From Streptococcaceae bacterium (lineage in GTDB: Bacteria; Bacillota; Bacilli; Lactobacillales; Streptococcaceae), in the NCBI GenBank assembly GCA_031254295.1, contig JAIRUS010000017.1:1-59068 (forward strand): 59,068 nucleotides of DNA, written 5' to 3'. Every line of letters begins with the position of its first letter. Position 1 is the stretch's first letter. The notes under the pieces were generated by a model that saw only the letters and a program-made list of their open reading frames with translations, had not been told where the DNA came from and did no database searches. Positions 16,874 to 41,661 of the stretch are shown here, in pieces. The position numbers and the translations under genes are program-made.

Positions 16874-18217
16874 ATGCAACTAATTATTAATATTCTTGTT
16901 TTTATCATTGTTTTTGGAATCATTGTGGCCATTCATGAATATGGGCATCTTTTCTTTGCCAAGCGCTCAGGTATTCTTGTACGTGAATACGCTATTGGTA
17001 TGGGACCAAAAATCTTTACTCACCGTGGAAAAGACGGAACGCTTTATACGATTCGAATTTTGCCAGTTGGTGGCTATGTTCGTATGGCGGGTTGGGGAGA
17101 TGATACAACTGAGATCAAAAAAGGACAATCTGCGACATTATCGGTAGAGGCACTTCCAGATATGGCTGCACAAAGTGGCTCAGAAAAAAATAAAAGCTCA
17201 AAATTGATAACTCTGCAGGGAGATACGCTTCCTATGGAAAAAGAATTCATCCGGCGTATCAATCTTTCGGAACATGTGACGCTTGAAAATGCCATACCGA
17301 TTCAAGTGACGGATTATGATTTTGAAAAAGATCTATATATTGAAGGTGAAGTATTTGGTGAGAAAAAACGTTTTGTAGTTGATCATAATGCTACGATTAT
17401 TGAAGAAGATGGTACAGAGCTAAGAATTGCACCGCTTGATGTTCAATATCAGTCTGCAAGCATTCTTGGAAAAATCATTACGAACTTCGGTGGACCACTG
17501 AATAACTTTATCTTAGGTCTTGTTGCCTTTATCGTACTTGTGTTTATTCAAGGTGGTGTCCCGTCAAATACAACTGTAGTAGGCACGACACCAAAAGATA
17601 TGCCAGCTTATCAAGCAGGACTTCGCTCAGGTGATGAAATCCTTAAAATTAATAATATAAAAGTTTCAAACTGGACTGAGCTCGTGACAGAAATGTCAAA
17701 GGTCAAGTCAAATGAAGTCAATGTTCAATTTTCAAGAGGAAATCAAACAAAAGAGTTAGCAATTGTCCCGAAGAAGTCAAACGGATTAGTAGTAATTGGA
17801 ATTACGCAGCAGCTTAAAACAGGCTTTGTAGACAAAATTGTAGGTGGCTTTAGTCAGACTTGGAGTGCAATGACCTTGATTTCTCGTGCGCTTGGTGACT
17901 TGTTTGCTCACCCGAATTTAAATAAACTAGGTGGACCTGTTGCTATTTTCCAAGAAACTGGTCAAGCAGCTAGGACAGGTATTGCAGGAATTATTAGCTT
18001 CCTCGCTCTACTGTCTATCAACCTTGGAATTGTCAATCTGATTCCAATTCCAGCTCTTGATGGTGGAAAAATTTTGCTTAATCTCCTTGAAGCAATTCGG
18101 CGTAAACCACTTAAGCCCGAACATGAACAAATTGTGACCTTTGTCGGTGTTGTTTTTATGATTGCGCTGATGCTTGCCGTTACTTGGAATGATATCATGC
18201 GCTTTATTGGCCATTGA
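16874..18217 (+). CDS. rseP: Site-2 membrane metalloprotease RseP/Eep
   Basis: An intramembrane zinc protease of 447 residues. The zinc motif HEYGH is near residue 20, preceded by the first membrane helix. A PDZ domain occupies about residues 245-320 (AGLRSGDEILKINN). The second active-site motif NLIPIPALDGGKI is near 388. In streptococci and enterococci the homologue Eep processes leftover signal peptides, including peptide pheromone precursors, which may matter for the short peptide gene at 40.9 kb; that link is only inferred. An AAGGGGG site precedes the ATG. Confidence 0.95.
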   Translation: MQLIINILVFIIVFGIIVAIHEYGHLFFAKRSGILVREYAIGMGPKIFTHRGKDGTLYTIRILPVGGYVRMAGWGDDTTEIKKGQSATLSVEALPDMAAQSGSEKNKSSKLITLQGDTLPMEKEFIRRINLSEHVTLENAIPIQVTDYDFEKDLYIEGEVFGEKKRFVVDHNATIIEEDGTELRIAPLDVQYQSASILGKIITNFGGPLNNFILGLVAFIVLVFIQGGVPSNTTVVGTTPKDMPAYQAGLRSGDEILKINNIKVSNWTELVTEMSKVKSNEVNVQFSRGNQTKELAIVPKKSNGLVVIGITQQLKTGFVDKIVGGFSQTWSAMTLISRALGDLFAHPNLNKLGGPVAIFQETGQAARTGIAGIISFLALLSINLGIVNLIPIPALDGGKILLNLLEAIRRKPLKPEHEQIVTFVGVVFMIALMLAVTWNDIMRFIGH

Positions 18218-39506: not shown

Positions 39507-39516
39507 GTTGAATAAC

Positions 39517-39557
39517 AAAAAATCCCTAAGAATTTTACGGATTCTTAGGGATTTTTT
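39517..39557. terminator. Bidirectional terminator nusG / mscL
   Basis: A 17-bp stem (39517-39533 with 39541-39557, core AATCCCTAAGAAT) with a 7-nt loop and A/T runs at both sides, between convergent nusG and mscL. Confidence 0.95.
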
Positions 39558-39563
39558 GTTTGA

Positions 39564-39935
39564 CTAAATTTTGCTATTTTCCTTAAGGAGATTGCGGATT
39601 TCTTTTAGCGTCTCCAGTGTTTCATCAACACTTTCTTCTTTTGGTTTTACAGGGAAAGTTTTCCGAATGAATTTGATAATGAGGAAAACGATAAAAGCCG
39701 TAATGAGAAAATTTAAAGCATCGTTTAGAAAATTACCGTAATAGAAATTAGCCGAAGCGACCCTGAAGTGTAAGCTTTGCAAAGCATGACCGCTTACGAC
39801 TAAGCCAATCAATGGATTGAAAAGGTTGTCAACGATGGATTTTATGACTGTTGTGATTGCACCACCAATGATAACGCCGACTGCAAGATCAAGCATGTTT
39901 CTTTGGGCTAAAAATTCTTTAAATTCTTTAATCAA
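39564..39935 (-). CDS. mscL: Large-conductance mechanosensitive channel MscL
   Basis: A 123-residue homopentameric channel that opens under membrane tension on hypo-osmotic shock. The N-terminus IKEFKEFLAQRNMLDLAVGV leads into helix 1 (about 14-45, with GVIIGGAITTVIKS), and helix 2 is near 68-92, followed by the charged cytoplasmic helix. Its ATG overlaps the stop of the Rgg gene by 4 nt (ATGA), so the two are transcribed and translated together. Confidence 0.95.
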   Translation of the reverse strand: MIKEFKEFLAQRNMLDLAVGVIIGGAITTVIKSIVDNLFNPLIGLVVSGHALQSLHFRVASANFYYGNFLNDALNFLITAFIVFLIIKFIRKTFPVKPKEESVDETLETLKEIRNLLKENSKI

Positions 39936-40837
39936 TAGGCCTCCTTTAGTCCTTGGAGTTTTTTCTCCATTTGAGTAATTTCGTCACTGATTTGAACTGC
40001 AATCTGAAAGCAACCACAATGCTTAAATATTTCAAGATTTTTCTTTAAAGTCTCAAGTGCCGAAGCATCACCAAGTAGAAAATCAAGACGAGCTTTGTGG
40101 CAGAGTAATGTCAGTTTCTCGTTCATATAGTATTCACCAATTCCTCGGTCTTCAAGAAATAAAATATATTTTTGGGCTAAGGTAGGTTGGTTTGCCTCTA
40201 TGAATTGATTGATGATATTTAACGTAGCCTGAGTTTGATAAAGTTCGTGGAAATAAGTTCTTTTTTCAATTTGTACAGGGGCGAGCATAATATTTGTAAG
40301 TCTTGAAAGGGTAAACGGATCAAAGGCATTGGCTGTCCATTGTATCAATCTCAACTCATAAATTCCCCAAATTTGTATTCCCTCAAGATAGTTTTGAACA
40401 AATACTAAGTCTTCGTCGGAAATTTTCTTTTGTAAATGAATCATGCTGATTGCGGCTATTACGATAATTCGATCAAGCTTTGCTTTTAATTGACTTGCTT
40501 TTTTCTTGAGATTATCCTCAGCGAGCTCAAGCAAATATTCAAGTTTATGGATATTTTTTTGCAAATATGCATCTTGAACTTGATGATAACTAAGAAAAAT
40601 ATCCTTAGTTTGATTGTGAGTGTTCCAAACAGTTTGAAACTCATCTACTTCAACATTTATATTATTTAAAACTTGAAAAAACGAATCTGTTGATAGACGT
40701 GAATTTCCACACTCAAATCTAGCAAGCTGAGAGGGGGAAATAACTCTGCTTGCAGCTTCAGCTAATGTAAAGTTTTTTGATTTTCTTAGTAAACGAAAAA
40801 CTTTACCATATTCGGTATTTATTGCACTTTGTCTCAT
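39932..40837 (-). CDS. Rgg-family peptide-responsive transcriptional regulator
   Basis: A 301-residue protein with an N-terminal XRE helix-turn-helix (FRLLRKSKNFTLAEAASRVI, then SPSQLARFECGNSRLS, about residues 10-48) and a long helical C-terminal repeat domain as in Rgg/MutR/GadR regulators. ATG 40837 is chosen because GGAGAT lies 5-6 nt upstream. A divergent 24-codon hydrophobic peptide gene starts 105 bp away, the layout of streptococcal rgg-shp pairs. Downstream it is coupled to mscL. Confidence 0.9.
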   Translation of the reverse strand: MRQSAINTEYGKVFRLLRKSKNFTLAEAASRVISPSQLARFECGNSRLSTDSFFQVLNNINVEVDEFQTVWNTHNQTKDIFLSYHQVQDAYLQKNIHKLEYLLELAEDNLKKKASQLKAKLDRIIVIAAISMIHLQKKISDEDLVFVQNYLEGIQIWGIYELRLIQWTANAFDPFTLSRLTNIMLAPVQIEKRTYFHELYQTQATLNIINQFIEANQPTLAQKYILFLEDRGIGEYYMNEKLTLLCHKARLDFLLGDASALETLKKNLEIFKHCGCFQIAVQISDEITQMEKKLQGLKEAY

Positions 40838-40882
40838 AGTAATCTCCAGTGTATATATGCAAAAAAATCGCTTGTTAAATGT

Positions 40883-40911
40883 TTGTTTTGAATCTACATA
40901 CATTATACAAT
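40883..40911 (+). promoter_or_regulatory. Promoter of the short hydrophobic peptide gene
   Basis: TTGTTT (40883-40888), 17-nt spacer, TACAAT (40906-40911), 30 bp before the peptide ATG. The weak -35 suggests dependence on an activator such as the adjacent Rgg. Confidence 0.6.
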
Positions 40912-40941
40912 AAATCTATTAAATAAAGAAGGAGAGATAAT

Positions 40942-41016
40942 ATGCAGAAAAAACGATTCATGCTGTTGTTGACAGTTGTAGTTGTAACTCTAGCGCATGT
41001 GATAGGAGGAAACTAA
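40942..41016 (+). CDS. Putative SHP-type pheromone precursor (24 aa)
   Basis: MQKKRFMLLLTVVVVTLAHV followed by IGGN. This is a basic N-terminus, a strongly hydrophobic middle and a Gly-Gly-containing end, which is the layout of streptococcal SHP peptides sensed by Rgg proteins. GAAGGAG (40928-40934) is an excellent ribosome site 7 nt upstream. It is divergent from the rgg gene and followed by its own terminator. The mature pheromone would be the last 7-9 residues. SHPs are usually matured by Eep, whose gene (rseP) is at 16.9 kb. The lack of an acidic residue in the C-terminal part differs from the best-known SHPs. Confidence 0.75.
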   Translation: MQKKRFMLLLTVVVVTLAHVIGGN

Positions 41017-41025
41017 TTAAAGCTT

Positions 41026-41056
41026 AAGAAGGGAAGACGGAGTTCTTCTTTTTTTA
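41026..41056 (+). terminator. Terminator of the short peptide gene
   Basis: AAGAAG (41026-41031) pairs with CTTCTT (41045-41050) followed by T residues to 41055. The 13-nt loop is long but the T-tract is good. Confidence 0.6.
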
Positions 41057-41067
41057 ATGTCTCTGAG

Positions 41068-41096
41068 TTGACATTGAGTATTATCTTTGATATGAT
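41068..41096 (+). promoter_or_regulatory. S10 operon promoter
   Basis: TTGACA (41068-41073), 17-nt spacer and extended -10 TGaTATGAT (41088-41096). This is a near-consensus strong promoter. Confidence 0.88.
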
Positions 41097-41103
41097 TTTA
41101 AAG

Positions 41104-41227
41104 TACTGCAAATTTCAGTATGTAGCGATGATGCGTGAGGTTGCGACACACCCGAACCTATAGCCATGAGCGAGTCGGTATTCATGCGGAGCTAGCCTAT
41201 ATCCAATATAGACGAAAAGGAGAAAAA
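41104..41227 (+). other. S10 operon leader RNA
   Basis: A leader of about 120 nt separates the promoter from rpsJ, long for this genome. It can form several short stems. In other bacteria L4 controls the S10 operon through such a leader; here a regulatory role is only inferred. The motif ACACCCGAACCTATA (41147-41161) recurs with one change just upstream of the rpsH promoter. Confidence 0.4.
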
Positions 41228-41536: not shown

Positions 41537-41550
41537 AAGAGTTACGATGA

Positions 41551-41661
41551 TTTGAGCAAAAAGGCCCTAACGGTGTCCGTTTTGCTGGCAAATTAAAATT
41601 TGAGCAAAAAGGCCCTAACGGTGTCCGTTTTGCTGACAAATTAAAATTTGAGCAAAAAGGC
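41551..41661 (+). repeat. 48-bp tandem hairpin repeats between rpsJ and rplC
   Basis: A 48-bp unit begins at 41551 and is repeated at 41599 with one base changed. A third, 15-bp partial copy begins at 41647. Each full unit contains AGCAAAAAGG and CCGTTTTGCT, which pair as a stem-loop. There are two full hairpins in series within an operon transcript. Confidence 0.85.

What the first reader, a model, noticed from the sequence alone, without database searches (positions are those of the whole stretch)
39564..41056. Rgg/SHP-type quorum-sensing pair coupled to mscL
A 24-codon gene (40942-41016) with an excellent ribosome site, its own promoter and terminator lies divergent from an Rgg regulator. 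The peptide ends in AHVIGGN after a hydrophobic stretch, as in short hydrophobic pheromones. The rgg stop overlaps the mscL start (ATGA), so a mechanosensitive channel is co-translated with the pheromone receptor. MscL is not a usual member of rgg-shp loci. It could be a target of the circuit or simply share the promoter.
Basis: partly seen in the sequence, partly recalled or inferred. Interest (0 to 1): 0.82.

Follow-up and report, generated by a model that had tools for sequence, protein, structure and literature searches.

The report
Rgg–pheromone pair inserted beside mscL
A probable bacterial cell-to-cell signalling pair (a small hydrophobic peptide gene and the Rgg regulator facing it) sits between a ribosomal-protein operon and a pressure-valve gene (mscL); the pair is of a known type, and the valve gene looks like a bystander that was there before the regulator arrived.

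Summary
The sequence is as described, with one error: the rgg stop overlaps mscL at TTGA, so mscL starts with TTG, not ATG. The regulator is a genuine Rgg; the nearest solved structures are SHP-pheromone receptors. The 24-codon frame is very probably its propeptide gene: strong ribosome site, basic N-terminus, hydrophobic core, GG near the C-terminus, divergent from rgg. Among 23 Rgg loci from this and related genomes, such frames are 33 times denser in the divergent upstream slot than elsewhere. The peptide has no Asp/Glu, which defines SHP groups I and II, so it is SHP-like rather than canonical. The frame itself is not conserved: a sister species has the same nusG–mscL–rgg order but a secreted CHAP-domain gene in the pheromone's place. 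mscL facing rpsJ is found without rgg in two other lactococcal-lineage genera, so rgg was inserted between them in this genus and mscL was not recruited as a target. A third species keeps an rgg pseudogene and an mscL without its 5' end. mscL is probably co-transcribed with rgg, but nothing found suggests it responds to the pheromone. Verdict: new member of a known kind, fairly low interest.

The parts
40942..41016 (+). candidate propeptide gene (SHP-like), 24 aa MQKKRFMLLLTVVVVTLAHVIGGN; mature form probably the last 7-10 residues (inferred)
   Evidence: only frame in the window that passes the strict SHP filter; class-level enrichment
40929..40934 (+). ribosome-binding site AAGGAG, 7 nt before ATG
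   Evidence: sequence
40883..40911 (+). likely propeptide promoter: weak -35 TTGTTT (40883-40888), 17 nt, -10 TACAAT (40906-40911)
   Evidence: -10 block conserved in sister species G004
40878..40904 (.). imperfect inverted repeat AATGTTTGT-N9-ACATACATT over -35/spacer; possible operator, not better than chance and with no second copy in the genome
41024..41057 (+). weak hairpin plus U-run after the propeptide frame (possible terminator)
   Evidence: -12 kcal/mol, z -2.3
39932..40837 (-). rgg: HTH plus TPR-like pheromone-receptor regulator, 301 aa
39564..39935 (-). mscL, TTG start overlapping the rgg stop (TTGA)
39940..39947 (-). mscL ribosome site AAAGGAGG inside the rgg 3' end
   Evidence: sequence
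39515..39560 (.). strong bidirectional terminator between convergent nusG and mscL
   Evidence: -28.5 and -25.3 kcal/mol, z -7.6 and -9.1
41068..41096 (+). promoter of the S10 (rpsJ) operon, TTGACA-17-TATGAT; start of the flank conserved with congeners

Best explanation
This is an Rgg-type pheromone circuit in a Streptococcaceae genus of the lactococcal lineage. The 24-aa precursor is made from a weak, probably Rgg-dependent promoter, exported (by PptAB/Ecs in the streptococcal precedent), trimmed to a C-terminal peptide near (TL)AHVIGGN, re-imported by Opp, and bound in the TPR groove of Rgg, which then activates its own pheromone promoter and unknown distant genes. The rgg unit was inserted into the older mscL|rpsJ intergenic region; mscL lost its own upstream region and now follows rgg in an overlapping gene pair, as a passenger rather than a pheromone target. 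Shown: gene anatomy, homology, synteny, an enrichment test for the class, presence of Eep, Opp-type and EcsB homologues. Inferred: export, processing, binding, autoinduction and co-transcription.
For: Rgg identity: TIGR01716 and Rgg_C well over cut-off. Best sequence and fold matches are the SHP receptors Rgg2, Rgg3 and Rgg144 (model pLDDT 84.7). Propeptide: strict filter finds only this frame in the window; 10 hits in about 10 kb of divergent upstream slot against 5 in about 168 kb elsewhere over 23 Rgg loci, 33-fold, e.g. MKKKRLLHDLAVIATVLITAVPLYALIMG in this genome and MRKIKNYKFLMVLTFLLALVPYYLISGLGM, MKKYKFIYFLTVITVAILSYPIIIW, MKKSKFTSLLVALVSLVVVFVEVLPWG in relatives. Machinery: RseP/Eep homologue at window 16883-18205, SBP_bac_5 proteins, EcsB/PptB-type protein. 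mscL as bystander: mscL faces rpsJ with nothing between in two genera (L058-L061), and its upstream partner is yebC in two congeners (L025, L026); rgg stands between in G000 and G004; G001 holds an rgg remnant (NELNLAQKYITFIKSNGI; frame read).
Against: The propeptide frame has no orthologue: G004 has a CHAP-DUF5648 gene in that slot and 335 family genomes hold no second copy. No acidic residue marks a cleavage site. No operator above chance and no second site in the genome. SHP presence is not clustered on the Rgg tree beyond chance (6 changes, 94 of 500 shuffles as low). Export and processing genes are common and do not prove a circuit.
Confidence: 0.7

Rival explanations
1. mscL is a functional output of the circuit: pheromone-bound Rgg raises rgg-mscL transcription, linking channel level to cell density.
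For: Stop/start overlap and strong ribosome site; rgg-mscL order kept in two species whose Rgg proteins are only about 50% identical; mscL shares a transcript end at the bidirectional terminator.
Against: mscL sits at this place without rgg in other genera and follows yebC in others; no operator evidence; no paper in the library joins mscL, Rgg and SHP.
Confidence: 0.1
2. Orphan Rgg: the regulator controls whatever gene faces it (a CHAP-domain secreted protein in G004), and the 24-codon frame in this genome is a chance or decaying frame, or an unrelated tiny membrane peptide.
For: The slot is not conserved between the two species; about one SHP-like frame per shuffled 59 kb arises by chance; the -10 block is conserved although the downstream genes differ.
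Against: Exact position, orientation, ribosome site and basic-hydrophobic layout, plus the 33-fold class enrichment.
Confidence: 0.17
3. The short frame is a leader or attenuator of the S10 operon rather than an independent gene.
For: It ends about 50 nt upstream of the rpsJ promoter.
Against: rpsJ has its own conserved promoter and an S10-type leader downstream of it; other genera have the leader without this frame.
Confidence: 0.03

Closest known systems
Streptococcal Rgg/SHP groups I and II (Rgg2-SHP2, Rgg3-SHP3, Rgg1509)
   Same: Rgg with HTH plus TPR; propeptide divergently transcribed; 20-26 aa with N-terminal Lys, hydrophobic stretch and Gly near the end (PMC12445099, PMC5167397)
   Different: No Asp/Glu, the residue that defines groups I/II (PMC13361665); extra C-terminal Asn; outside Streptococcus; no adjacent target operon; sits between mscL and rpsJ
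Divergent 'relaxed/loose' Rgg propeptides of RRNPP_detector (PMC10075063)
   Same: Basic N-terminus then hydrophobic region, next to an Rgg, different from reference SHPs
   Different: Those shown were from Streptococcus; this one is from a lactococcal-lineage genus (the SHP profile itself was not available here)
RopB-LCP (leaderless peptide) systems
   Same: Rgg-family receptor with a divergent short peptide gene
   Different: Here 24 aa with a leader-like N-terminus; LCPs are 8-10 aa without leader (PMC13361665, PMC10518010)
mscL|rpsJ gene pair of the lactococcal lineage
   Same: mscL divergent from the S10 operon
   Different: Here rgg and the propeptide gene lie between them

Membership tests
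Rgg / RRNPP transcriptional regulators | N-terminal HTH plus C-terminal TPR-like domain of the Rgg type | tested here: met
   TIGR01716 and PF21259 over cut-off, HTH_3 just under its cut-off; model best matches Rgg2/Rgg3/Rgg144
Rgg/SHP group I or II | shp divergent from rgg, promoters in the shared intergenic region | tested here: met
Rgg/SHP group I or II | conserved Asp (I) or Glu (II) at the N-terminus of the mature SHP | tested here: not met
   no D or E in the 24 residues (definition PMC13361665)
Rgg/SHP group III | shp convergent with and overlapping the rgg 3' end | tested here: not met
   frame is divergent from rgg; mscL overlaps the rgg 3' end
SHP propeptides, loose description | 20-26 aa, N-terminal Lys, hydrophobic stretch, often C-terminal Gly and/or central acidic residue | tested here: met
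   24 aa, K3 K4 R5, hydrophobic 6-17, G22 G23; acidic residue absent (PMC12445099)
Rgg/SHP circuit | export (PptAB), processing (Eep) and import (Opp) genes in the genome | tested here: met
   homologues only, function not shown
Rgg/SHP circuit | secreted peptide activates its promoter through Rgg | not testable with these tools
   needs a reporter assay
RopB-LCP | 8-10 aa leaderless peptide | tested here: not met
   24 aa with basic-hydrophobic N-terminus

The most novel reading that the evidence does not exclude
A pheromone circuit that sets the level of the mechanosensitive channel MscL with cell density, with mscL translationally coupled to the pheromone receptor.
Probability: 0.08. Interest if true: 0.7.

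Novelty: new member of a known kind. Interest (0 to 1): 0.3.

Why it matters
It extends Rgg-propeptide signalling, described mainly in streptococci, to an unnamed genus of the lactococcal lineage, and shows divergent propeptides facing Rgg in several lactococcal-lineage genomes. It also shows one Rgg locus whose facing gene differs between sister species (a pheromone in one, a secreted CHAP protein in the other). If mscL did respond to the pheromone it would link channel supply to population density, but the synteny argues against that.

Tried and rejected
Operator search: the best inverted repeat between rgg and shp is matched by 64 of 200 shuffles and has no second genomic copy within 2 mismatches. 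Peptide search in 335 family genomes: only the window itself; small-frame hits at L042, L044, L045 and L047 have no rgg nearby. Mobile-element origin: no plasmid and no viral relative of the Rgg. LCP or SHP in the G004 slot: none convincing; only MFQKKLIIHETVTQNRIFAVSKEK on the rgg strand has a ribosome site. CHAP homologue as a shared target in this genome (L051): upstream region not similar to the shp promoter. G001 as a 'never had rgg' control: rejected, because it holds an rgg remnant running into mscL. Tree: SHP-bearing Rggs do not form one clade and are not clustered beyond chance.

Full report
What is in the sequence. The frame 40942-41016(+) encodes MQKKRFMLLLTVVVVTLAHVIGGN and has AAGGAG 7 nt before its ATG. 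On the other strand, 105 bp from its start, rgg begins at 40837 and ends at 39932 (301 aa). A strong bidirectional hairpin lies between the convergent nusG and mscL, so an rgg-mscL transcript probably ends there. The propeptide promoter has a weak -35 and TACAAT as -10, which would suit an activator-dependent promoter (inference). The hairpin after the frame is weak (-12 kcal/mol, z -2.3).

Identity of the proteins. The regulator exceeds the NCBIfam and Pfam cut-offs for Rgg C-terminal domains. Sequence search of the PDB gives the SHP receptors first, and the predicted model (pLDDT 84.7) matches Rgg2, Rgg3 and Rgg144 best by Foldseek, with PrgX and ComR further down. MscL is ordinary.

Is the small frame more than chance? 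A strict filter (ribosome site, 18-32 aa, two basic residues near the start, no acid early, hydrophobic core) finds exactly this frame in 59 kb; shuffled windows give 1.1 on average. So the frame type alone is not rare; its place and orientation are what count. Over 23 Rgg loci from this genome and relatives, a slightly looser filter gives 10 hits in about 10 kb of divergent upstream sequence and 5 in about 168 kb elsewhere, 33-fold. Near-identical loci are counted apart in that figure (L013/L014, L015/L020, L017/L019), so there are 7 independent propeptides, one of them weak (L003). The propeptides share an MKK-type start and a hydrophobic core but have different C-termini, as expected for receptor-specific pheromones.

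Conservation of the locus. In congener G004 (deposited as Streptococcaceae bacterium TD116_bin48) the order nusG-mscL-rgg is the same, with rgg about 50% and mscL 78% identical and a start/stop overlap, but a secreted CHAP-DUF5648 protein faces rgg, and the contig then reaches the rpsJ leader. No propeptide frame was found there. The -10 block of the window promoter is nevertheless 90% conserved. In congener G001 mscL faces rpsJ with no intact rgg, but an in-frame remnant of the rgg 3' part (NELNLAQKYITFIKSNGI) precedes an mscL that has lost its own start. In two further congeners mscL follows yebC. In four genomes of two other genera mscL and rpsJ are direct divergent neighbours with roughly 230-360 bp between. 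The simplest history is an old mscL|rpsJ pair into which rgg was inserted in this genus, upstream of and overlapping mscL, with a facing gene that then differed between species. This explains the mscL coupling without a functional link, though it does not exclude one.

Mechanism. By the streptococcal precedent (PMC5167397, PMC13361665) the precursor is exported by PptAB, processed with the help of Eep, imported by Opp, and binds Rgg, which activates the shp promoter. Homologues of all three kinds are in this genome: RseP/Eep in the window itself, SBP_bac_5 proteins, EcsB. None of these steps is shown here. No regulon could be inferred.

Membership. The regulator is an Rgg. The peptide fits the loose SHP description (PMC12445099) but lacks the acidic residue that defines groups I/II (PMC13361665), is not convergent as in group III, and is too long for an LCP. 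Divergent, non-canonical propeptides next to Rgg have been predicted in Streptococcus before (PMC10075063). I therefore file it as a new member of the Rgg-propeptide kind with a non-canonical peptide.

Limits. Only one genome carries this frame; no strain series was available; the class test uses a filter of my own; peptide function is untested.

Noticed in passing
41120-41221 (+): Conserved structured leader before rpsJ in this and related genera; matches Rfam S10-Clostridia (RF03136) at 31.3 bits, just under the gathering score of 35.1. Suggests that this r-protein leader extends to the lactococcal lineage.
   Followed up: partly
41550-41661: 2.3 copies of a 48-bp tandem repeat between rpsJ and the L3 gene, each full copy able to form a hairpin.
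   Followed up: partly
L085 (G000:C97:6500-12387): A second Rgg of the same genome faces a 29-aa SHP-like frame (MKKKRLLHDLAVIATVLITAVPLYALIMG) followed by a 123-aa protein and a radical SAM enzyme; resembles pheromone-controlled radical-SAM peptide operons of streptococci.
   Followed up: partly
L009 115-1188 (-): In the sister species G004 a secreted CHAP-DUF5648 protein faces rgg; stretches like its DUF5648 part are greatly multiplied in that genome (37 matches).
   Followed up: partly
L024 1297-1530: Congener G001 holds an rgg pseudogene running into an mscL without its start; a second mscL copy is at L027.
   Followed up: partly
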